Positions 7,521 through 25,357 of a stretch of DNA of 33,001 nucleotides are shown in pieces (position 1 is the stretch's first letter; every line of letters begins with the position of its first letter). Location: positions 1 to 33,001 of the forward strand of contig JASBUV010000068.1 in NCBI GenBank assembly GCA_030147705.1, written 5' to 3'. A model generated the notes under the pieces. That model was given only the letters and a program-made list of their open reading frames with translations, had not been told where the DNA came from and made no database searches. The translations under genes were made by a program, and so were the position numbers. Source of the stretch: Gammaproteobacteria bacterium. Its GTDB lineage: Bacteria > Pseudomonadota > Gammaproteobacteria > Pseudomonadales > Pseudohongiellaceae.

Positions 7521-8432
7521 CTATAATTGCTCGACGTCATAACCTGCGTCTGCCAATAGTTTCAACAGACCGTCGTCACCAACAAGATGCGCGGCTCCTA
7601 CCAGTACAAACTCTGTATCGGCGTCCTGCAACATCGCATCGATCTGCGGCAACCAATCCAGATTGCGGCCACGCAATAAAAGCTCGTAGATATCCGGTGC
7701 GCGTTCCTGCATATCGGCGACAAACAGCTCCGTGAGCTGTTCCGCATCACCAGCACGCCAGGCAGAAATCATTCCCAGCATCGCTTCTTCGGTATTTTCC
7801 AAATCTGCCAGAGACATCAGAATGTATTCACTCTCTTTTCCTTCGCCCATAGATGCCAGGAATTCGATTTGCTCTTCGAGTGACTCCAGCCCTTCTATCG
7901 GTTTGCCATCTCCGGAAGCTCTGGCATTAAAATGCGCGTCAACCCCTTCTGGCGTGAATCCCAGTTTCTGGAACTCGAATACTTGCAAGGTGGTTACCAC
8001 CATACCCGGTTTGAATTTCTGCATCATGGCCAGAGGCAGGCCAACACTCGCTGTGTATTCTTGCAATGCTGCGTAGGCTTCTTCGCTTAACACACTTTGC
8101 AGAGTCCTCTCGTCGGTATAACTCATTGCTGTGAGCAAGCGTGCCTGGGTCGCAAGATCCGACATCGCGGCAATATCCGTTTCGAATACCAGTGTGTCAG
8201 ACGCTTCATAGGCTTGATCGTATTCCGTCGGTAGCGGGTAGTCCGAAGCACGCAATAAATGCACCGTGCCGCCGAGATAAACGGTGTTGCTGCCATTGCT
8301 TACCTTCCAGACCGAAGTGTCTGCCGCGACATAGCTGGCAGGAATCAGCGCGAGTAACACGCTGACTGTCAGGACAAAGAGCTTGGAAAGACTACGCAGC
8401 TGTTTGGAAAGGCTTTTCAACATTGGGTCCAC
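7521..8432 (-). CDS. TraB/GumN family protein
   Basis: A 303-residue exported protein of the TraB/GumN (Tiki-like) family, proposed to be metal-dependent proteases; bacterial members have no settled function. A signal peptide is clear: basic start, then LFVLTVSVLLALIPASYVAA with cleavage near residue 37. Family landmarks are VYLGGTVHLL (51-60, the N-terminal GxxH), VFETD (about 82-86) and the C-terminal FVLVGAAHLVGDDGLL with the second GxxH. The start is GTG at 8432: GGAG (8441-8444 on the complementary strand) lies 8 bases before it; an alternative ATG is three codons inside. It is transcribed alone, ending at the bidirectional terminator, and is divergent from the DUF6164 gene with a perfect inverted repeat between them. 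Confidence 0.9.
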   Translation of the reverse strand: MDPMLKSLSKQLRSLSKLFVLTVSVLLALIPASYVAADTSVWKVSNGSNTVYLGGTVHLLRASDYPLPTEYDQAYEASDTLVFETDIAAMSDLATQARLLTAMSYTDERTLQSVLSEEAYAALQEYTASVGLPLAMMQKFKPGMVVTTLQVFEFQKLGFTPEGVDAHFNARASGDGKPIEGLESLEEQIEFLASMGEGKESEYILMSLADLENTEEAMLGMISAWRAGDAEQLTELFVADMQERAPDIYELLLRGRNLDWLPQIDAMLQDADTEFVLVGAAHLVGDDGLLKLLADAGYDVEQL

Positions 8433-8486
8433 AACATCTACTCCACGAGGTTTGGCGTTCGAGATTCAGGTATAGTATCACTCACC

Positions 8487-8525
8487 TGCTTAACGGTAGC
8501 ATGGCTCCGTACTAACCGTTAAGCA
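8487..8525. promoter_or_regulatory. Perfect 11-bp-arm inverted repeat between divergent genes
   Basis: TGCTTAACGGT (8487-8497) and ACCGTTAAGCA (8515-8525) are exact reverse complements around a 17-base centre. The site lies between the divergent TraB/GumN and DUF6164 genes, 41 bases before the latter. An A-run follows the right arm, so a terminator for minus-strand readthrough is not ruled out, but the long loop fits an operator better. Confidence 0.5.
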
Positions 8526-8565
8526 AAAACCGGTTTATAGTCTCCCGCTCACGCTGAATCAGACG

Positions 8566-8928
8566 ATGTCGAAACTACTCTTCAGATTACGGAATGTTCC
8601 CGAGGACGAGGCCGAGGAAGTGCGGCAATTACTCGATGAGAACAACATTGCCTGGTTCGAAACCACGCCAGGCAATTGGGGTATATCCATGCCTGCACTG
8701 TGGATCCAGGACGTCAGTGAATTTGAACGAGCACGTGCGTTGATTGACGAATATCAGGCAGCGCGAGCCGTGCGGGTACGGGAAGAGTATCAGCGCGCCA
8801 GAGCGATGGGACAGGCCCCTACGTTCTGGCAAACGTTTCGTGAAAATCCCTTGCGGGTAATCGGCTACTTGAGCATGGCAGGCGTCGTGCTGTATTTCTC
8901 GTTACGGTTTTTTCTGAGCTTTCTCTGA
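8566..8928 (+). CDS. DUF6164 family single-pass membrane protein
   Basis: A 120-residue protein. Residues 1-65 form a small alpha/beta domain of the putative-signal-transducing (DUF2007-like) type: KLLFRLRNVPEDEAEEVRQLL, then NIAWFETTPGNWGIS and WIQDVSEFERARALIDEYQ, a pattern recalled from DUF6164. A charged helix (VRVREEYQRAR) leads to one C-terminal transmembrane segment (about 98-118, VIGYLSMAGVVLYFSLRFF). No function is established for the family. There is no strong ribosome binding site before the ATG. It stands alone. Its 3' end, stop codon included, is duplicated immediately downstream. Confidence 0.85.
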   Translation: MSKLLFRLRNVPEDEAEEVRQLLDENNIAWFETTPGNWGISMPALWIQDVSEFERARALIDEYQAARAVRVREEYQRARAMGQAPTFWQTFRENPLRVIGYLSMAGVVLYFSLRFFLSFL

Positions 8929-8951
8929 ACTCTTTCCGAGCTTTCTCTGAA
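8916..8951 (+). repeat. 22-base-period duplication across the stop codon
   Basis: GAGCTTTCTCTGAA occurs at 8916-8929 and again at 8938-8951, a period of 22 bases. The first copy holds the TGA of the DUF6164 gene. It is probably a slippage duplication; a similar arrangement with the same period is found at 25349. Confidence 0.7.
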
Positions 8952-9034
8952 GTAGGGCTGCCTGCGCGCAGAATAGTGCGCGGGGTATGCAACGATGCTA
9001 GTACTAACGTACTGAGGAATTCTCTGTTAACAGC

Positions 9035-9397
9035 TCAGCTCGCACACAGCTGTTGCCGTAGTCCCTGAGATACGATTGGCTCTTCTTCGACAGCCCCCTG
9101 CTCGATATCTTCTGCGAAGCTGACCGAGTTCTCGACCAGAAACCGCAGCGCAATATCTCGTCCAGACACGCGAGTCACCTGTACAGGCAAGGTCGGCGTT
9201 TCCAGTTCCCAGCCGTCTCCCTGTACTTCGATTTCAAATTCCATCATCACGAAACAGGTCACGTCGTCATGCAAGGTGAGGGCGAGTCCAGAGACCGAAA
9301 GATTTCTGACGGTAGCAGTCAGCACACCCAACAGCGGATGGCGCAGATTAACGCAGTAATCTACTTCCACTCTTCTGTGTTTTCTCCTGTCGATCAT
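9035..9397 (-). CDS. PilZ domain protein (cyclic-di-GMP binding)
   Basis: A 120-residue stand-alone PilZ protein. The c-di-GMP-binding motifs are both present: DRRKHRRVEV (3-11; the RxxxR element) and NLSVSGLAL (32-40; the N/DxSxxG element). The beta-barrel continues to about residue 95 and ends in an acidic tail (AEDIEQGAVEEEP). The frame is open to 9544, but ATG at 9397 is chosen: AGGAG (9407-9411 on the complementary strand) is 9 bases before it, and the PilZ motif starts right after. It lies downstream of lhr on the same strand with a ~290-base gap, so it probably has its own promoter. The output it controls cannot be read from context. Confidence 0.88.
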   Translation of the reverse strand: MIDRRKHRRVEVDYCVNLRHPLLGVLTATVRNLSVSGLALTLHDDVTCFVMMEFEIEVQGDGWELETPTLPVQVTRVSGRDIALRFLVENSVSFAEDIEQGAVEEEPIVSQGLRQQLCAS

Positions 9398-9685
9398 TGT
9401 TAACTGCTCCTGTGAACCTATACACATCGTTTCTGATGGCACGAGCTTCTCTTCATGCCATGCAAGTAGCATACGAGTCGGATAGAATTCGCGGTGTGAT
9501 TGGGGCCACAGAACATGCTCGATGGAGTTTGAACCAGTTCGCAAATCGCGTCGCGAGACGGTGAAAACAGAGGTATAACGGACGGGTTTTACAGAAGTGT
9601 GACGCAGTTCCGATTTGCCGAAAGAAATGTCAGTGTCTGGAACTTCCCTACAAATTTTTCGCGCTGCAGTGCGTTTTACAGACGC

Positions 9686-12600
9686 TTATCGTGTACCAAG
9701 ATAACTGCGCAGGCGCGGTGGATAACTGCGTTTTAGCAGTAGCTGCTGGAGCGTCCACTGCTCGGCGTTGTTATCTGTAGTGGGTTCTTCCGAAGTGGCA
9801 TTCTGGTGTTGAAGTTCCGGGTTTCTGAGAAAGTGCACTTCGCCTGACTCGAGCATCGCAACTGGAATTCCGCCTTGATAGAGAACCCTGTTGCCACTCG
9901 TGCGCGCAAGCTTGCGTGTTGGCTGTATGAGATTGAGTAGATTGGCCGGATCACATGCTGCCAGACAATAGAAAGGTGCGACCGTGCGCTGACTAATCGA
10001 CTTCTTGAATTGTCTGAGCGCATCAACCGTTTCGGAGTTGGCAAATTGCTCGCCACCGACACCGGCAATGAATCGGCCTCCACGGAGCATTCCCTGCAGT
10101 TCCAGTTTGCGAAGCTGGCGCAGCAGAATCCGCCAGGGCGGAGCGAGTGCTTCGCGCTCAACGAAAGAACGGCATAACACGCCCCAGCGTTGCAGATAAA
10201 CGTGGATCACTCGTTGCAACTGTTCCTCGTCAAGCACATCCCAATCCGGTTGTCTTTGCAGCCTTTGATTGTGGCGGCTAACGCTTTCATTCGACGTGTG
10301 CGTTTTCACAAAAGTATCGAGCAGGCTCCATCGCCCCGCATCGGCGACACCAAACATCGCTTGTCGTTGTCGCCGACGATGAGTCGCTGGCTTCTTGCTC
10401 GCCGGTGTAAGCAGCGCGCGCAGTCCGGTAAAACTGTCGCTGCTCACTCTGCCCTGGCTAACCAGTTCGGCAAGACCTTCTTCCAGTTGCGTACGAAGCA
10501 ATCCGGTGCGCGTTTGAATCTGATCAAAAAAACTGGCGCCGTGATTCAGCAAATCCTGTTCGATACGCTGTGCGTTGGTGCTGTACTCAACCTGACTGTC
10601 GGCCTGTTGTTGCTCAGCGGCCAATGCTTGCCAGATATCCATGTTTTGGCGCAATGCCACTATGATCGGAGTACTGCGCACAGGACCGGCTGTTCTGGCG
10701 CGCTGCAGATTTTTTCTGTTCACAGCCGGTAAGCTGTATCGCCCCCAGAAAGTACGACCACTTATGCAAAGCACATCCAGCCAGTTGGGGTCGTAGTCAT
10801 TCACTCTCGTCGGCATAAGATCGGCTTCCCAACTCGAAGCCGGGACTGAGAAGCCATCGAGCGTGACGAGCGCCGATTGCAAACGGGTCTGCCCGTCCAG
10901 GCCGGGTTCAGCATCCTGCGCAGTCTCGTCTTTGACAGGCATGATGTGTTGCCGATGAAACAGGTACTCGGTGAACGCGTCGAGTGAGACGGGCTTGATC
11001 GCCGCACGGTGACTATCGATGGTGTAGCGATGGATGCGTTGCAATAATCTGCGCTCACACCACTCTGTTAACTCAGCGGCGTCGTGATCAGACTTTTTCA
11101 GAGCTGGGCTGAATTGCCCCTGAAAAACAAATCCTTCCACTTCGAGTGCGAGCAGGGCGGCTTGTATCTGGCTGTGGGCAAAGCCTAGTGGTGCGGCCAA
11201 TTGTTGGGCCGTCACCGGCCCCAGACATTCCAGCCTGCAACGCACAATCTCTCTCGTCGCTTCTTCGACTTCCCATTCTCTTGAGCGGAGCGCTTCCGGC
11301 AGAGAATCGGGCAGTGGCGCTGTTGGCAATACGGCCTTGAACATAGACAGGTTTTCAGCAGCAACCCAAATCGATTCCTGCTGCGTTGTCAGCTCGTAAA
11401 TACGCCCGCTTTTTTGCAAGCCCTCAGCGAGTTGTGCGTACTGGTGAGTCGTAAATTCGGAAACGGTAATGAATGCTGCACTCAGAAGTGCATCATGCAG
11501 CTCCTCACTATTGGTCACCGTGGGCCATGCCTCTTCCCTGACCCGCGCGATTGCTTCTTGATCCAGCACGCTGTAATCGCTGGCCTGAGCCGGGTCAGCC
11601 CAGCTGCGGTGGCGGATTGCATTGGTGCGGCGCTCTTCAAAGGGTGCATCATCTAGAAAGGCATAAGGCCGCGCATTGATGATTTCCTGCGCAAAGGGTG
11701 AAGGTTCGCGCAAGTCCTTGGCAATGAGAGTTAGCTCGTCGCGTTCCATTTGTGCCAGCAGTGCTTCGAGCTCGTCGATATCCATAGCCTCGGTCAGACA
11801 ATCGTTAACCGTCTGCCTGACCAGAGGATGATCCGGGACATCGCGCTTGCCGGAAATATTTTCTGCGCAGGCGATCTGGTCGGGAAACACATGTGCGACG
11901 AGATCTTCTGCATCCATGCGCTGAAACTGGGGCGGCACACGTTTGCCGTTGCGGTTGCGTTGTATCGCCAGGGATCGAGTCGCATTCCAGCGCCAGCGCA
12001 CCTCAAACATGGGCGCGTCCAGCATCGCCTGAATCAACACTTCTCGCACTGTCTTGCTGTGCAGGTAGCGATAGACCTCGTCCAGTTCGAAGCTGTGTAC
12101 CGAGCCGAGAGAGATAACAATACTGTCTTCGTTCGCAGCCGCCTGTAGCTCGAAATTGAACGATTTACAGAAGCGTTTACGCAGCGCCAGACCCCAGGCC
12201 CGATTGAGTCTGCTGCCATACGGTGAATGAATGACCACATGCATATCACCCACTTCGTCGAAGAAGCGCTCCATCACTATCGTGGCACGCGTCGGCATGA
12301 CACCCAGCGCCTGCATGCCGGTCTGTAAATATTCAACCAATTGACTGGCTGCCGCTCTTGGCAAGCCGATGCTATCCACACACCACTGCAGGGCAGCGTT
12401 GGCTGAATCATTGACTAACAGATCTGCTATCCGTTCGCGCAGTGTTGAAACGGCTTGCGAGAGTTCTTGTGTGCGACCCGGCCCTTCACCGAACCAGAAT
12501 GGTATCGTTGGAGACATGCCCTGTGCATCGCGCACTCTGACCTTAAGCCCATCGACGCGTAACATTTGCCAGCTATGTGTACCAAGTGTAAACACGTCTC

Positions 12601-15653: not shown

Positions 15654-16616
15654 TCAGTCTTGTAAGCCTTGTTGTTGACCAATCGGATTATAGGTCAGAC
15701 GCTTCCCTGAGATTTGTTTCAGAGCTATATCAGCTCTCTCAGAGTCGTCATAACCGTTAGCTGTCCTGTGGTTGTATCGGAAGTCGAATTCCGAGAGGTA
15801 ACGGGATAGGTGGCGTTCCTTGCAGTGCTGGTAGGTTCCTTTCATGCCGCGCTTAAACACTGAATAGTAGTTTTCCACTGTGTTGGTGTGCAGCAAGGGA
15901 TTGTCCTTGCGTACATACTCGCCAGCAGCGTGGTTAACGATGTGATGCTGTGCGAACTTGGGACCGATTGAGCGATACACTGAGGCACCGTCAGTCATTA
16001 ACTGGGCGTCTCGGGCTACGTTCTCACGGATGATAGGCATTAAGGTTTTAACGTCTACCTTGTCCACATGAATTGATCGCACTTGCTTGGTGTCACGGTC
16101 TACCAGAGACAGGACTTTACGCTTCTGCTTGGAGTAGGGAGCGCCGATTTTGCCTCTTGCAAGGTCTTTACGGGGCTTGGCATCGACCTTGCCCATGTAG
16201 GTTTCATCGACTTCTACCATTCCGCCACCAGAGCCGAAGGGAGACGAGGACTCGTCTTTCATCGCTTCACGGATGCGGTGGCACATGAACCACGCTGTTT
16301 TGTAGGTAACTCCTACAGTTCGGTGGATCTGATGGGCTGAGATGCCCTTCTTTGAAGAACACATGAGATAGGTTGCCATTAACCACTTGTTGAGAGGCAC
16401 CCTTGATCGCTCGAATACTGTACCGACTGTCACAGTGAACTGCTTGCGGCATTCGTACTCTTTGCACTTATACAGACCCACTCTAGCCCCTTTGATGGGC
16501 CAGGCTCCGGTTGAATCACAGTGAGGACACACGGGGCCTTCGGGCCAGCGCAATTCCTCTAAGTATTCTCTCGCTTTGTCTGCGTCTTGAAACTGGGGCT
16601 GTGTTAGATTGCACAT
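15654..16616 (-). CDS. IS1595-family (ISXO2-like) transposase
   Basis: A 320-residue DDE-type transposase of the IS1595/IS1016 group. An N-terminal zinc ribbon is visible (CPHC near residue 30, then KCKEYEC near 50), followed by a helix-turn-helix-like region (SKKGISAHQIHRTVGVTYKTAW). The catalytic ISXO2-like domain has VEVDETYMG, LMTDGASVY and NTVENYYSVFKRG, supplying the acidic residues. The protein appears full length. ATG at 16616 is chosen (AAAGG 7-8 bases upstream); a GTG three codons earlier is also possible. I could not see matching terminal inverted repeats or a target duplication around the gene, so the element may be decayed at its ends or the ends may lie further out. Confidence 0.88.
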   Translation of the reverse strand: MCNLTQPQFQDADKAREYLEELRWPEGPVCPHCDSTGAWPIKGARVGLYKCKEYECRKQFTVTVGTVFERSRVPLNKWLMATYLMCSSKKGISAHQIHRTVGVTYKTAWFMCHRIREAMKDESSSPFGSGGGMVEVDETYMGKVDAKPRKDLARGKIGAPYSKQKRKVLSLVDRDTKQVRSIHVDKVDVKTLMPIIRENVARDAQLMTDGASVYRSIGPKFAQHHIVNHAAGEYVRKDNPLLHTNTVENYYSVFKRGMKGTYQHCKERHLSRYLSEFDFRYNHRTANGYDDSERADIALKQISGKRLTYNPIGQQQGLQD

Positions 16617-16959
16617 ATCGTTCACCTTTTGTACGATGTGCTAACTGTATACATTCCCAGTGGGTTTGTAAAGTATATAATTATCACGGACATACAGGTT
16701 AGGTGAGCTTGCGGTGCTTTGCAAGTCAGTCAATGGCGACTACTGCCAGTGCTCCTGACAGGATTATCGAAGACACCAAGTGCGGAGATCGGCCGTGATC
16801 TCTCTGCTTGCGTTCGTATAAAGTCCCGGGGCCCGCGTGGTAATGCGGCGAATACGTCCCTCGACGCCGCAAAAATCGGCTCGGCAAATTGACACAGCCG
16901 GGTGTCAGGGCTACTTTAAAAGTCTTGGAAGTAGCTTCGCAGGAAGTGTTTAGCCAGTA
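16617..16959. other. Intergenic region between transposase and lepB
   Basis: No gene seen. On the minus strand, TTTACA and TATACA about 15 bases apart just upstream of the transposase could be its promoter. GAGATC (16785-16790) and GATCTC (16797-16802) form a small perfect inverted repeat. The lepB promoter candidate lies near the right end. Confidence 0.35.
16889..16917 (+). promoter_or_regulatory. lepB: Candidate lepB promoter
   Basis: A perfect -35 TTGACA (16889-16894) is followed, after exactly 17 bases, by TACTTT (16912-16917), a weak -10. TGACAC/GTGTCA within the spacer forms a 6-bp inverted repeat overlapping the -35, a possible binding site. Confidence 0.45.
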
Positions 16960-17780: not shown

Positions 17781-18380
17781 ATGCAAAAACGAAAAATTGG
17801 CAGCCAACCATCTGGTTTGCTCGCTGGATTGCTGATGGTTGTGGGATTGCTCTTCACACCATTGCTTACCGCACAGGAATTCGTGTGGGCACCGGAATTT
17901 CCTGTCGGTGCCGAGATCGCAGAGATTTCTGCCCAGGACCAGGATGGAGAACTGCGCGAGTTCGCTGACCTTGTTGGCGAAAATGGCATGCTGTTCATGC
18001 TCAGTCGCTCCTTCGACTGGTGACCCTTCTGTACTGCTCAGCTCGTGCAGCTGATAGATCTCACAGAACAGTTTGAAGCAATCGGCGTCAGCATTGTGGC
18101 CATGACGTACGATCCCGTGGATTTCCTCAAGGAAGTTGAGCTGGATCGAGGCGTGGAATTCACTCTGCTAAATGACGAGGCCATCACCCACGTCAATCGG
18201 CTGGGCATTCTCAATACTGACTATGCACCGGATTCACGGGCCTATGGTGTGCCCTATCCCGGAATCTTCCTGATCGATACCGACGGTGTGATTCGCTACA
18301 AGTTCGCCGAGGAAAGCTATCGCGACCGCCCGGATTTCGCGAACGTGCTTGAAGCGGCGACAGAAATGGCCGGGCAATAA
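17781..18380 (+). CDS. Secreted peroxiredoxin-like selenoprotein (UxxC), TGA at 18021 read as selenocysteine
   Basis: AhpC/TSA-type thioredoxin-fold protein, 199 residues when the in-frame TGA at 18021-18023 is read as selenocysteine (residue 81). The two halves are in the same frame, and the TGA falls where related redoxins have the first Cys of the active-site CxxC: RSFDW-U-PFCTAQL (U81, resolving C84). The fold continues without a break: SIVAMTYDPVDFL, then GVPYPGIFLIDTDGVIRYKF, ending in a final helix. A signal peptide (residues 1-31, GLLMVVGLLFTPLLTAQ) sends it to the periplasm, where it would reduce peroxides or disulfides. ATG at 17781 is preferred over an open frame from 17715 because the signal peptide starts there. 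A hairpin with bacterial SECIS geometry follows the TGA. The alternative is a nonsense mutation or sequencing error, but exact placement at the catalytic Cys makes that unlikely. Confidence 0.85.
18027..18068 (+). promoter_or_regulatory. Candidate bacterial SECIS element
   Basis: Just after the TGA at 18021, TTCTGT (18027-18032) pairs with ACAGAA (18063-18068), and inside it TCAGCT (18038-18043) pairs with AGCTGA (18049-18054), both perfectly. The apical loop is CGTGC (18044-18048), with a G in its second position, 20 bases after the TGA. Known bacterial SECIS elements have the loop roughly 16-37 bases after UGA and a G among the first two loop bases, so the geometry fits SelB recruitment. 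Confidence 0.7.
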
Positions 18381-21154: not shown

Positions 21155-21185
21155 GTGCAAACCTTTCTTTCCCAGCCTCGTCTGA
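21155..21185 (+). promoter_or_regulatory. Candidate autoregulated ECF promoter
   Basis: GTGCAAACCTTT (21155-21166) contains the AAC core usual in ECF -35 elements. CGTCTGA (21179-21185) follows, with 16 bases between AAC and CGTC, a typical ECF spacing. Transcription would begin near 21190, about 20 bases before the sigma gene's ATG. ECF operons are commonly autoregulated. Confidence 0.55.
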
Positions 21186-21210
21186 TCTCTAAAGGGCAGA
21201 ATTGAGCAGC

Positions 21211-21867
21211 ATGGACAAAGCCACAATACATTCGATTGCAACGCTAGCCGGCGGCGAAGAAGCCACGATCAAGTCCGATCGGGAATTGGCACGACGCGCA
21301 GCCCGCGGCGACAGGAACGCCTTCCAGCAAATAGTCGATACCCACAAGCAGCGCATGTTTACCGTTGCCCGCAGTGTGATTGGCGAACCGGCAGCGGCGG
21401 AAGATATCGTCCAGGATTCGCTGATCAAGGCGTACCGTGCACTCACGGATTTTCGTGGCGATTGCCTGCTCTCTACCTGGCTGCATCGCATTACCTACCT
21501 CACTGCGATCGATGCGCACCGCGCCCGCAAACGCTATTTGCAACTGGCGACCGACGACGGCGTCGAAGTCGACATTGAAGACGAAACCCCAGGCTCCAGC
21601 GGCGAAGCCGATGTTGAGTCCAACCAGCTGAAGCAGGAAATCGACGACGCACTCGGTTGCCTCAGCCCTTTTGAGCAGACCGTCTTCACACTACGGCATA
21701 TGCAGAATTTCAAGTTACGGGAGATCGCGCTGGTCGTTGATCGCTCTGAAGGCACAGTCAAGAACATCTTGTTCCGGGCTATCCGCAAAATGCGAGAGCG
21801 CTTGCAGGACAGTTATCTGAACAAGGATCTGAACGGCAGTATGAATGAAGGTATAGAGACATGTTGA
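21211..21867 (+). CDS. ECF sigma factor (RpoE-like)
   Basis: A 218-residue extracytoplasmic-function sigma factor. Region 2 is at about 30-105: RGDRNAFQQIVDTHKQRMF, AAAEDIVQDSLIKAYRAL and STWLHRITYLTAIDAHR. An acidic linker follows (VEVDIEDETPGSS), then region 4 (LSPFEQTVFTLRHMQNFKLREIAL, then SEGTVKNILFRAIRKMRERL). There is no region 3, as expected. ATG at 21211 is used; a TTG at 21202 sits better behind AAAGGG (21191-21196) and would add three residues. The last 7 bases overlap the anti-sigma gene, implying coupled translation. The likely role is an envelope-stress response controlling this operon and perhaps the DUF5916 gene. Confidence 0.93.
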   Translation: MDKATIHSIATLAGGEEATIKSDRELARRAARGDRNAFQQIVDTHKQRMFTVARSVIGEPAAAEDIVQDSLIKAYRALTDFRGDCLLSTWLHRITYLTAIDAHRARKRYLQLATDDGVEVDIEDETPGSSGEADVESNQLKQEIDDALGCLSPFEQTVFTLRHMQNFKLREIALVVDRSEGTVKNILFRAIRKMRERLQDSYLNKDLNGSMNEGIETC

Positions 21868-22619
21868 ATTGTGAATCGTCGCAGCTCCTGATGGCAGATG
21901 CGCTTTACGGCTCACTGCCTCAGGAACAGGAAGCCACGCTGCAGCAACACCTGCAGGAATGTGAAGCCTGCCAATCGCTCTTTTCGTCACTGCATGAAGA
22001 CAAGGGCGTATTGGAGAGCCATGGCATCGCCAGCGGTAATTTCGATGACATTCCTGAACGCGCAGCACTCGACAAGCTGTGGACTAACATCCAACCCGCG
22101 CTCGACAGTATCGATGCGGAACGCTATCGCTCACGCGCAGGTTTCCGACCGGCACCCTGGCTGGCTGCAGGGATGGCGATTGCCGCCAGTGTCATCGTGT
22201 TCTTCTCGGTACTGCCTTCCGGAGTGGAAGACGTAGCGCCGCTTACTGCGAGCAACACAGGCGCACCATCGTCACAGATAAGTCCCGAACTTTTGAGTTA
22301 CCTGACTCGCGTGGAAACGATGCTGATGTCGGTTGCCAATGCGAATGAGAACAGCGCCAATGTCGTGCCTGTGCAGCAAACCTTTGCACGCGACATGGCA
22401 ATGCAGGCGAATTTTATGACCAACAATCTGGACGACTCGTTCAGCTCGGGTCAGTCACGCTTGCTGAAAGACATCGAATTCATGTTATTGCAGATCGCAA
22501 ATCTGGATGAGAGCAACATGGAAGAAGGCGTGAGCCTGTTGCAGCAATACATGGAAGACAACAGTGTTCTGTTGAAAATCAGATTAATGGAGATGCGCAA
22601 TCAGCCAGAGATTATCTGA
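21861..22619 (+). CDS. Membrane anti-sigma factor with zinc-binding domain
   Basis: A 252-residue single-pass membrane protein. The N-terminal cytoplasmic part carries the zinc anti-sigma motif HxxxCxxC (H30, C34, C37, with C4 as the possible fourth ligand). A transmembrane segment is at about 98-118 (PWLAAGMAIAASVIVFFSVLP), and the periplasmic part (about 119-252) is Asn/Met-rich and helical with no recognised sensor domain. It starts inside the sigma gene (ATG at 21861, stop of sigma at 21865-21867). By family logic it holds the sigma factor inactive until an envelope signal. The unusual periplasmic tail (MLMSVANANENSANVVPV onwards) may bind the HEAT-repeat proteins encoded next. Confidence 0.85.
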   Translation: MLNCESSQLLMADALYGSLPQEQEATLQQHLQECEACQSLFSSLHEDKGVLESHGIASGNFDDIPERAALDKLWTNIQPALDSIDAERYRSRAGFRPAPWLAAGMAIAASVIVFFSVLPSGVEDVAPLTASNTGAPSSQISPELLSYLTRVETMLMSVANANENSANVVPVQQTFARDMAMQANFMTNNLDDSFSSGQSRLLKDIEFMLLQIANLDESNMEEGVSLLQQYMEDNSVLLKIRLMEMRNQPEII

Positions 22620-22652
22620 GCAGAGGCGCATTGACGAGTAGAGGTGTAGACC

Positions 22653-24329
22653 ATGAAAAAGAAACTCCTGGCACTTTCAATCGGAGTCCTTTCATTATCG
22701 ACCGTGCAGGTTTTCTCCCAGGAAGACAATACGTCCTATCGGGAAGGCTATCAGCTCATTCTGGAACAGCAATGGGAGCGGGCACGCGATCATTTTCAGG
22801 AGTTCCAGACGCAATGGGCGGACAGCTCCTGGGCTGACGATGCGGCTTTCTGGCATTGCTACGCCATTGAGCAACTCAATACCGAATCGCGCGAGCACTT
22901 TGCCTGCTATCAGGATTTCCTGAACAACTGGCCGGAGAGCTCCTGGGTCGCCGATGCACGTGGCAAGATTCTGGTGCTGGGCTCGCGACTTGCGCAACGC
23001 GGAAATCCTGAGTACCTGCAACAGCTCCGCTTCTTCAGCACTGGCGATCCTGATGTAGATTTCGATTTTGATTTCGATGACATCGATGACACCGTCGCTG
23101 CGGCTCTGGACAGAGCGGAACGGGAATTGGAGCGGGTGCGAATTGTGCGGGAAAACATGGTTCCCCCGCGACCTCCCGTGCCAGATGTGCCTGACCTGCC
23201 CGACAATATTTTCATTTCCCAGGACGGCGATGAAATTCGGTTTGAAATTGAAGAAACGATTCGTGAAGCACAACGCAATGCCAGAGAAATGGCAGAGCGA
23301 GCGCGAGAGGCTTACCGCTCCCGTGGATTCAGCCGCAGCCGAAATACGGCGGACGATGAATTGCTGACCATTCTCGCTGCGTTGCGTGATAACGAGAGAG
23401 CCTCTGACATATTACTCGATCGACTGGAGTCCAGTGATGATCCGCAACTGCGCAGTCGTATTGTTCTCTTGCTGGAAGATATTCCGGGCGAGCGCATCAG
23501 CAATTCCTTGCTCGATCTCGTGGATAATGATGAATCGGAAATTGTGCGCAATAACGCAGTGATCGTATTGCTCGACCGCAATGAGCCGGTAGCTCGATCC
23601 AGACTTCTGGAAATCGTCGATGACGAATCCTTTCCGGTATCGATTCGCTCTGAAATAGTCGGGGATCTGGATAACTGGGAAGAGAGTGAAGCCATCCCGG
23701 TGCTGGGTCGTTTGTTGAGAAATTCTACAGAACCAGCGCTCATCGAAGAGGCTGCTGACGCGCTGGCCGATATTGGTAGCGACGAAGCGGTAAGCGTGTT
23801 GCTCGATGGCTTCTCGCAGCAACAGGATATGGGACTGCGCTATGTCATGCTTGAGGAGATCGCCAATCTCGAGACACCACGCGTCATGAATTTTCTTTCC
23901 GATATCGCGCTGGAAAACGAAGACGATGAACTCGCTGCCATTGCCATAGATGGCATCGCAGACCGGGAAGACAATATTGGTGTTGCCGCGTTGGAGCATA
24001 TCTATCTGCAATCCCAAAATCAGCAGCGACGGCTGGCCGCGATGATCGGCATTGGCGAAGCCGAGAACGCCTACGCCTATGATGTAATATCAGAGTTGAT
24101 TGCCGATGAGACGAACCCGGAACTCCTGGCAGTTGCCGCCAACGCTCTGGGCCGCACCGGACAGGAAGATGCGATCGACAGATTGATGTCGATCTATTCG
24201 GCGAGCAGTGATTCCAATGTGCATCGCTCCGTAATCAGAGCGCTGCGCCGTCTGGAACGCTTCCCGGCAGCGACAGAAGCAATGCTGAATATTCTCGAAG
24301 ACCGATTGGCTAGCGCCGAGGCGCAGTAA
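22653..24329 (+). CDS. Exported TPR/HEAT-repeat protein in the sigma operon
   Basis: A 558-residue protein with a signal peptide (residues 1-22, LLALSIGVLSLSTVQVFSQ). Residues ~25-110 resemble a tetratricopeptide pair of the outer-membrane lipoprotein/YbgF type (REGYQLILEQQWERARDHFQEF, then YQDFLNNWPESSWVADA). A short acidic tract DVDFDFDFDDIDD and a charged helical linker (130-225) follow. From about 230 to the end are some ten HEAT-like repeats of ~31 residues (pattern LLDLVDNDESEIVRNNAVIVL). AGAGGT stands 7 bases before the ATG. It is the third gene of the ECF operon, 33 bases after the anti-sigma gene, and overlaps the next gene. It is probably a periplasmic scaffold or sensor acting on the anti-sigma factor; no enzyme motif is present. 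Confidence 0.85.
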   Translation: MKKKLLALSIGVLSLSTVQVFSQEDNTSYREGYQLILEQQWERARDHFQEFQTQWADSSWADDAAFWHCYAIEQLNTESREHFACYQDFLNNWPESSWVADARGKILVLGSRLAQRGNPEYLQQLRFFSTGDPDVDFDFDFDDIDDTVAAALDRAERELERVRIVRENMVPPRPPVPDVPDLPDNIFISQDGDEIRFEIEETIREAQRNAREMAERAREAYRSRGFSRSRNTADDELLTILAALRDNERASDILLDRLESSDDPQLRSRIVLLLEDIPGERISNSLLDLVDNDESEIVRNNAVIVLLDRNEPVARSRLLEIVDDESFPVSIRSEIVGDLDNWEESEAIPVLGRLLRNSTEPALIEEAADALADIGSDEAVSVLLDGFSQQQDMGLRYVMLEEIANLETPRVMNFLSDIALENEDDELAAIAIDGIADREDNIGVAALEHIYLQSQNQQRRLAAMIGIGEAENAYAYDVISELIADETNPELLAVAANALGRTGQEDAIDRLMSIYSASSDSNVHRSVIRALRRLERFPAATEAMLNILEDRLASAEAQ

Positions 24330-25357
24330 TGATGCGCTCTTTCGCTTCCCGGCTACTCACCTTGCTCGCTACCTGTGCCGGATGTGTAGTGTGGACTTTG
24401 CCAGCGCTTGCTCAAATCGAAGTGCACGAGGCGGACACTTCGCTGACCCTGGAAGCACGCTGGCAATGGGCAACTGAACAACTGCCTGGAGACAGTAGTG
24501 CATACATCGCGTGGCGTTTCACTACTGTGCTTGATGAGAAGTTGCACATCAATGCGATGGCCGCATTCGAGCATGGCATTGGTTGGCAGCGCGGCCTTTC
24601 CGTGAATGCCCTCATCGCCGGCAACCGTCGTCCGCAGGAGATCCATCTCCGTTCCCGGGAACTGGTGATGTTGATGAAGTTCAGCAACAGACAACTGCTT
24701 GAGGTCGATCTGCTGGACAGCACCGATCCCATACGCTGGCAGCAGCGACTGTACTGGTTGGGTGATGGTGAGAGCGTCGCAAGCTATCAATTGCTCGCTG
24801 GGCTGCTCGATCCCGACGCGGAGCGCTCGGTCAATCGTGGCCTGATCAATGCCATCGGCGTTCATACCGTCAACGAGCGCAATGGATTTCTCAATGCCTT
24901 GCTGAATACCTCGCAATGGGCTTCCTATCGACCAGTGATACTGCACGCGCTGGCACAGCAACATTCCGGTGAAACTGAAACTCTCTTACTGGAGAGTGCG
25001 GCAAGCGACAATACTGAGCTCACCGAACGCCTCGTGGCAATTACTGCGCTGCGCAGTTATTCCTCACTCGATAGCCTGCAAGTCCTGCTCAGCCTGACCG
25101 ACGCACGTTATCCGCAAAGGCTGCGCCGTGAGGCCATCGAATCCCTGGCCTGGTTCCCCGCAGAACAGGTCAGTGAGCACCTGAACCAGATCGCCTGGTT
25201 TGACGACAATCACCGCGTGCGCAACGAAGCGGTGAAAAGTCTGGCGAAACTACAAAGCGGCAATGCCAACACTCTCTTGCTCACCATTGCGCGCCAGCAC
25301 CCGAGTGCTGCAACGCGTGAAGAAGCAATGGATACCCTGCGTCACCAGCTCTTCTGA
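24329..25357 (+). CDS. Second exported HEAT-repeat protein in the sigma operon
   Basis: A 342-residue protein with an N-terminal signal (RLLTLLATCAGCVVWTLPALAQ, cleavage near 29). A beta-rich or mixed region occupies about 30-150, and HEAT-like helical repeats follow (about 170-342: VILHALAQQHSGETETLLLE, LPQRLRREAIESLAW-type segments, NEAVKSLAKLQSGNANTLLL). The start overlaps the previous stop (TAATG, 24327-24331), the hallmark of translational coupling, so the two HEAT proteins are probably made in equal amounts and may form a complex. No catalytic motif is seen. The 3' end of the gene is duplicated just downstream. Confidence 0.82.
   Translation: MMRSFASRLLTLLATCAGCVVWTLPALAQIEVHEADTSLTLEARWQWATEQLPGDSSAYIAWRFTTVLDEKLHINAMAAFEHGIGWQRGLSVNALIAGNRRPQEIHLRSRELVMLMKFSNRQLLEVDLLDSTDPIRWQQRLYWLGDGESVASYQLLAGLLDPDAERSVNRGLINAIGVHTVNERNGFLNALLNTSQWASYRPVILHALAQQHSGETETLLLESAASDNTELTERLVAITALRSYSSLDSLQVLLSLTDARYPQRLRREAIESLAWFPAEQVSEHLNQIAWFDDNHRVRNEAVKSLAKLQSGNANTLLLTIARQHPSAATREEAMDTLRHQLF

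What the first reader, a model, noticed from the sequence alone, without database searches (positions are those of the whole stretch)
21211..25357. ECF sigma / anti-sigma operon ending in two exported HEAT-repeat proteins
The four genes overlap or nearly touch (7-base overlap, 33-base gap, TAATG overlap). Pairing an ECF/anti-sigma module with two periplasmic repeat scaffolds is not one of the textbook arrangements. The anti-sigma periplasmic tail has no known sensor domain, so the HEAT proteins may form the sensor.
Basis: inference. Interest (0 to 1): 0.5.

Follow-up and report, generated by a model that had tools for sequence, protein, structure and literature searches.

The report
Self-controlled sigma switch with exported HEAT proteins
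A small bacterial gene switch (a sigma factor and its membrane-bound inhibitor) is tightly linked to an exported coil-shaped repeat protein and appears to switch on mainly its own operon, so the exported protein is probably both its product and part of its sensor.

Summary
In detail: an ECF sigma gene, a zinc-type transmembrane anti-sigma gene and two exported HEAT-repeat genes lie at the stated coordinates and junctions. The first three genes are a real conserved unit. They occur together in 12 of 137 genomes of the family, all in one genus; HEAT1 follows the anti-sigma gene in 12 of 12. Three more genomes carry only deletion scars. No genome searched keeps an intact HEAT1 without the sigma pair. 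HEAT2 is optional: 6 of 12 carriers, and shortened in the window.

Upstream of sigma, TGCAAACCTTT-N12-CGTC is preserved in 12 of 12 species (one substitution) while flanking DNA is at background. It occurs nowhere else above control, so the circuit seems to control mainly its own operon. The anti-sigma's periplasmic tail is more conserved than its sigma-binding domain. A second ECF module in the same genome carries HEAT repeats fused to the apparent anti-sigma protein.

Best reading: HEAT1 is the circuit's exported output and probably binds the anti-sigma tail as a co-regulator, working like RseB or CnrX without belonging to either family. Binding, signal and phenotype are untested. New variant of a known kind.

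The parts
21156..21182 (+). ECF-type autopromoter TGCAAACCTTT-N12-CGTC (-35 21156-21166, -10 CGTC 21179-21182, invariant A at 21185)
   Evidence: Conserved 12/12 species (one C>T) at 0.98-1.00 identity against about 0.28-0.30 in upstream flank and spacer; no other sites above control
21211..21867 (+). ECF sigma factor (regions 2 and 4)
   Evidence: Pfam Sigma70_r2 4e-13, Sigma70_r4_2 2.6e-11; relatives start at the same ATG
21861..22619 (+). transmembrane zinc anti-sigma factor with periplasmic tail
   Evidence: zf-HC2 over cut-off; C4/H30/C34/C37 in 11 of 12 species; TM about 100-118
22284..22616 (+). periplasmic tail of the anti-sigma (residues 142-252)
   Evidence: mean pairwise identity 0.67 (res. 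142-165) and 0.75 (res. 196-248) against 0.44 for the zinc domain
22653..24329 (+). HEAT1: signal peptide, TPR-like domain (res. 27-123), acidic/proline linker (124-232), HEAT solenoid (233-558)
   Evidence: adjacent to the anti-sigma in 12/12
24329..25357 (+). HEAT2: exported, non-HEAT N-terminal region then HEAT repeats; shortened copy (342 aa against 483-494 in full-length relatives)
   Evidence: present in 6 of 12 carriers

Best explanation
A self-contained, autoregulated ECF circuit. The membrane anti-sigma holds the sigma factor through its cytoplasmic zinc domain. Its conserved periplasmic tail is the regulated part. On an envelope signal the sigma is released and transcribes its own operon from TGCAAACCTTT-N12-CGTC, making more sigma, anti-sigma and the exported TPR-HEAT protein HEAT1 (plus HEAT2 where present). 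HEAT1 is a periplasmic binding scaffold. It is the circuit's output and most likely also contacts the anti-sigma tail, or limits protease access to it, as a co-regulator, so that its occupancy by client proteins or ligand sets sigma activity. Shown by sequence: operon, domains, promoter conservation, co-inheritance, tail conservation. Inferred: autoregulation (about 0.9), HEAT1 as main output (about 0.75), direct HEAT1-tail contact (about 0.45), identity of the signal (unknown).
For: HEAT1 adjacent in 12/12 carriers and never intact without the sigma/anti-sigma pair. Three scar genomes lost the functional unit together, one as an in-frame sigma-N/HEAT1-C fusion. Promoter invariant in 12/12 with background flanks, also in G876 where the operon sits in another neighbourhood. 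No excess of other sites: 74 matches at up to 2 mismatches against 87 for the reversed control in the 12 carriers. Anti-sigma tail more conserved than its zinc domain; in G886 three of four zinc ligands are lost while the tail is kept. Same genome: ECF sigma (C290:7593-8165) followed by an anti-sigma-like TM protein with fused C-terminal HEAT repeats (C290:8201-9175). HEAT1's closest solved relatives by sequence and fold are alphaRep binders; its N-domain matches CpoB and BamD.
Against: No direct evidence that HEAT1 touches the tail: no complex could be modelled, and the anti-sigma model is poor (pLDDT 53). Distance-matrix correlations tail-HEAT1 (0.70; partial 0.72) rest on 7 species and are lower than tail-sigma (0.88). 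The single-target inference uses a motif taken only from the autopromoter; degenerate targets could be missed. The unit is absent from most of the genus, so it is not essential.
Confidence: 0.55

Rival explanations
1. HEAT1 and HEAT2 are only effectors: periplasmic scaffolds or chaperone-like proteins made under sigma control. The anti-sigma tail senses the signal by itself, by ligand binding or regulated proteolysis, without HEAT contact.
For: They lie downstream of the autoregulated promoter and are its only detectable targets. The tail is highly conserved on its own. The TPR/BamD/CpoB-like N-domain suggests envelope work.
Against: Anti-sigma-HEAT fusion elsewhere in the same genome. HEAT1 never found without the sigma pair, although a pure effector could be kept under another promoter.
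Confidence: 0.35
2. The HEAT genes are a lineage-specific passenger: co-transcribed by history in one genus, with no functional link to the sigma pair.
For: Limited to one genus; most carriers share the same chromosomal site beside gcvT, so shared ancestry explains part of the synteny.
Against: Unit kept together at a different site in G876 and with different upstream neighbours in others; HEAT1 kept at 47-60% identity to the window copy in all carriers while HEAT2 is missing from half; scars show loss of the unit as a whole.
Confidence: 0.07
3. The sigma has a wider regulon with degenerate promoters, for example neighbouring FtsX/MacB permeases or the DUF5916 protein, and HEAT1/2 are minor members.
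For: Permease genes flank the operon in G876 and one lies upstream of sigma in G877; a DUF5916 gene lies upstream in several carriers.
Against: No excess of promoter sites with up to 2 mismatches over the reversed control; DUF5916 gene absent beside the operon in G025, G867, G885 and G876.
Confidence: 0.15

Closest known systems
RseA/RseB with sigma-E (MucA/MucB)
   Same: ECF sigma, TM anti-sigma with periplasmic tail, exported third protein encoded in the operon; RseB binds RseA and blocks DegS cleavage (PMC4598750)
   Different: HEAT1 does not match the RseB domain; it is a TPR-HEAT solenoid; the detectable regulon is one operon; the tail matches no known domain
CnrH/CnrY/CnrX
   Same: Periplasmic sensor protein associated with an ECF sigma and its anti-sigma; metal binding to CnrX is thought to switch CnrY (PMC4598750)
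   Different: CnrX is a small membrane-anchored metal sensor (own knowledge); HEAT1 is a soluble exported protein of about 535 residues that matches only repeat families
Class I zinc anti-sigma factors (RsiW and the ASDI groups)
   Same: HxxxCxxC domain, one TM; nearest solved chain is RsiW (5wuq, E 0.0085); fused C-terminal domains are conserved within ASDI groups (PMC7406223)
   Different: The tail is a conserved region without known relatives; the paper's main text does not mention HEAT proteins
alphaRep / PBS-lyase HEAT-like repeat proteins (NblB, YibA)
   Same: Same repeat family; best sequence and fold matches of HEAT1
   Different: Those are designed or, to my knowledge, cytosolic proteins; HEAT1 is exported and carries an added TPR domain and linker

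Membership tests
ECF sigma factor | Sigma-70 regions 2 and 4 only | tested here: met
   Sigma70_r2, Sigma70_r4_2; TIGR02937 97.9 bits, cut-off 42.9
ECF sigma factor | Adjacent co-encoded anti-sigma | tested here: met
   12/12 species, usually with a 7-base overlap
ECF sigma factor | Own ECF-type promoter (AAC motif, CGTC) | tested here: met
   TGCAAACCTTT-N12-CGTC 12/12
Class I zinc anti-sigma (ZAS) | HxxxCxxC zinc motif | tested here: met
   C4/H30/C34/C37 in 11/12; lost in G886; zf-HC2 over cut-off
Class I zinc anti-sigma (ZAS) | Binds and inhibits its sigma | not testable with these tools
   needs biochemistry
RseB/MucB | MucB_RseB domain | tested here: not met
   no such Pfam match at E<=1
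RseB/MucB | Exported product of an ECF operon, following the anti-sigma | tested here: met
RseB/MucB | Binds the anti-sigma periplasmic tail | not testable with these tools
   no complex prediction offered; anti-sigma model poor
CnrX | CnrX-type metal-sensor domain | tested here: not met
   Pfam matches of HEAT1 are HEAT, Arm, TPR and YfiO types; no CnrX entry among PDB sequence matches
HEAT-repeat protein | HEAT_2 repeats over cut-off, helical solenoid | tested here: met

The most novel reading that the evidence does not exclude
A previously undescribed class of ECF circuit with a one-operon regulon, in which an exported TPR-HEAT solenoid is both the sole output and the periplasmic co-anti-sigma that reads envelope client load by binding the anti-sigma tail; HEAT repeats are reused the same way by fusion in a second anti-sigma of the same genome.
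Probability: 0.3. Interest if true: 0.65.

Novelty: new variant of a known kind. Interest (0 to 1): 0.45.

Why it matters
Many ECF sigma factors with membrane anti-sigmas have no known signal. Here the likely sensor partner, the tail it would bind and the promoter that reports activity are all defined by conservation, so the question 'what does the tail read?' can be tested with one deletion and one reporter. If HEAT solenoids act as anti-sigma partners, 'HEAT repeat domain protein' annotations next to sigma genes elsewhere would gain a testable function.

Tried and rejected
Relatives on plasmids: none for P0002, P0003, P0007 or HEAT2; one weak repeat-only match for P0006. Viral contigs: none. 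Class- and phylum-wide anti-sigma searches gave only weak ECF/anti-sigma pairs without nearby HEAT genes (G200, G306). G062 has two adjacent exported HEAT proteins, the second resembling HEAT2, but its upstream side is cut by the contig end and its order holds no other genome. Literature: no paper in the held library was found that describes an ECF/anti-sigma/HEAT operon; hits were gene lists or unrelated. The main ECF re-classification paper is not held, and the ECF group was not assigned. The fold of the anti-sigma tail is uninformative. Mirror-tree correlations were computed but not used as evidence of binding (7 species). DUF5916 and permease neighbours were rejected as core parts because they are not constant.

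Full report
Observation. The four genes are present as described. The sigma gene runs from ATG 21211 to 21867 (a TTG at 21202 is also in frame, but relatives begin at the ATG). It overlaps the anti-sigma gene (21861-22619) by 7 bases; 33 bases follow; HEAT1 is 22653-24329; HEAT2 begins in the HEAT1 stop (TAATG) and ends at 25357. Pfam gives Sigma70_r2 and r4_2, zf-HC2, and HEAT_2 in both repeat proteins. The anti-sigma has one hydrophobic segment at residues 100-118 with basic residues before it, so residues 119-252 should be periplasmic.

Anatomy. HEAT1 is not a plain HEAT protein. After a signal peptide it has a TPR-like domain matching CpoB and BamD, then an acidic and proline-rich linker with low model confidence, then a regular HEAT solenoid (pLDDT mostly about 85-95). 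Sequence and fold searches place the solenoid with alphaRep proteins, an engineered binding scaffold built on the same repeat. HEAT2 has an N-terminal region of about 150 residues that is not HEAT, then HEAT repeats. In the window it is 342 residues against 483-494 in full-length relatives, lacking internal repeats and a Trp-rich stretch.

Conservation of the unit. A search of 137 genomes of the family found the anti-sigma in 12, all in one genus. In all 12, sigma and HEAT1 flank it. HEAT2 is present in G000, G012, G011, G032 (broken across frames), G877 and G886. It is absent from G025, G867, G885, G876 and G895, where no room is left before the next gene. It also appears absent from G879, where a second, near-identical contig has HEAT1 followed 136 bases later by gcvT. 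Samples of 369 genomes of the class and 399 of the phylum gave no full-length relative of the anti-sigma outside the genus, and 369 of the class gave none of HEAT1. Three further family members carry scars: G002 and G023 keep only the last 68 or so codons of HEAT1 between the DUF5916 gene and gcvT, and G865 has an in-frame fusion of the sigma N-terminus to the HEAT1 C-terminus. No genome keeps an intact HEAT1 without the sigma pair. In G876 the unit sits among FtsX/MacB permeases rather than beside gcvT, so the association is not only shared position.

Promoter. Aligning the DNA upstream of sigma revealed TGCAAACCTTT-N12-CGTC in 12 of 12 species, with one substitution (G011), followed by an invariant A three bases after CGTC. 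Identity is 0.98-1.00 in the two boxes and about 0.28-0.30 in the upstream flank and spacer. This has the form of an ECF promoter (AAC-type -35, CGTC -10; own knowledge) and argues for autoregulation. The strict site occurs at this operon in every carrier; additional sites are at the level of the reversed-pattern control. With up to two mismatches, carriers hold 74 matches against 87 control matches, and non-carriers look the same. The simplest reading is that the operon is the main or only target, which makes HEAT1, and HEAT2 where present, the output. The caveat is that the motif was learnt from the autopromoter alone.

The tail. In the anti-sigma, mean pairwise identity is 0.44 for the zinc domain but 0.67 and 0.75 for two tail segments, similar to sigma regions 2 and 4 (0.74, 0.78). 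In G886 three of the four zinc ligands are gone while the tail is intact. So the periplasmic part is under the stronger constraint, as expected for an interaction or sensing surface. It matches no Pfam domain above cut-off, and its model is unreliable.

A second case in the same genome. Contig C290 holds another ECF sigma (7593-8165) followed at 35 bases by a protein with an anti-sigma-like N-terminus, one TM segment and C-terminal HEAT repeats (8201-9175), then an exported repeat protein (9213-10421). The N-terminus matches no Pfam anti-sigma model, so the anti-sigma call rests on position, length and topology. It is a single instance, but it is the kind of fusion expected if HEAT repeats serve as the periplasmic arm of an anti-sigma.

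Mechanism. I favour a closed circuit in which HEAT1 is made by the sigma, exported, and feeds back on the anti-sigma tail. Shown: operon, domains, conserved promoter, co-inheritance, tail conservation. Inferred: autoregulation, HEAT1 as output, HEAT1-tail contact, the nature of the signal. The main rival is that HEAT1 is only an effector and the tail senses alone. The present data separate the two weakly, through the C290 fusion and the lack of HEAT1 without its sigma pair.

Relation to known systems. It works most like RseA/RseB or CnrY/CnrX, where a periplasmic protein acts on the anti-sigma (PMC4598750), but HEAT1 fails the domain test for either family. ASDI anti-sigmas are known to carry conserved fused domains (PMC7406223). 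No paper found describes a HEAT partner. From memory, related neighbourhoods exist in other phyla; this was not testable here. Verdict: new variant of a known kind, moderate interest.

Noticed in passing
window 17790-18380: AhpC/TSA-type redoxin with an in-frame TGA in ...SFDW-U-PFC..., very likely a selenoprotein with a UxxC active site. The TGA is conserved in all 13 loci inspected, and a following TCAGCT-CGTGC-AGCTGA-like hairpin sequence is near-invariant at the DNA level. Gene callers would split it in two.
   Followed up: partly
L129 (G000:C290) 7593-10421: Second ECF sigma, then an anti-sigma-like TM protein with fused C-terminal HEAT repeats, then an exported protein of repeated DTSGG units.
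   Followed up: partly
L126 8838-9611 (G865): In-frame deletion scar fusing the N-terminus of the sigma factor to the C-terminal HEAT repeats of HEAT1.
   Followed up: partly
L062 8822-9568 (G886): Anti-sigma with three of four zinc ligands replaced (C4R, H30C, C34N) while the periplasmic tail is conserved.
   Followed up: no
L131 3-2235 (G062): In a different family of the class, two adjacent HEAT-repeat proteins, the second with a signal peptide and similar to HEAT2 including its N-terminal region, with an ECF sigma gene downstream; contig cut upstream.
   Followed up: partly
window 15654-16625: IS1595-type transposase gene (minus strand) near the locus.
   Followed up: no
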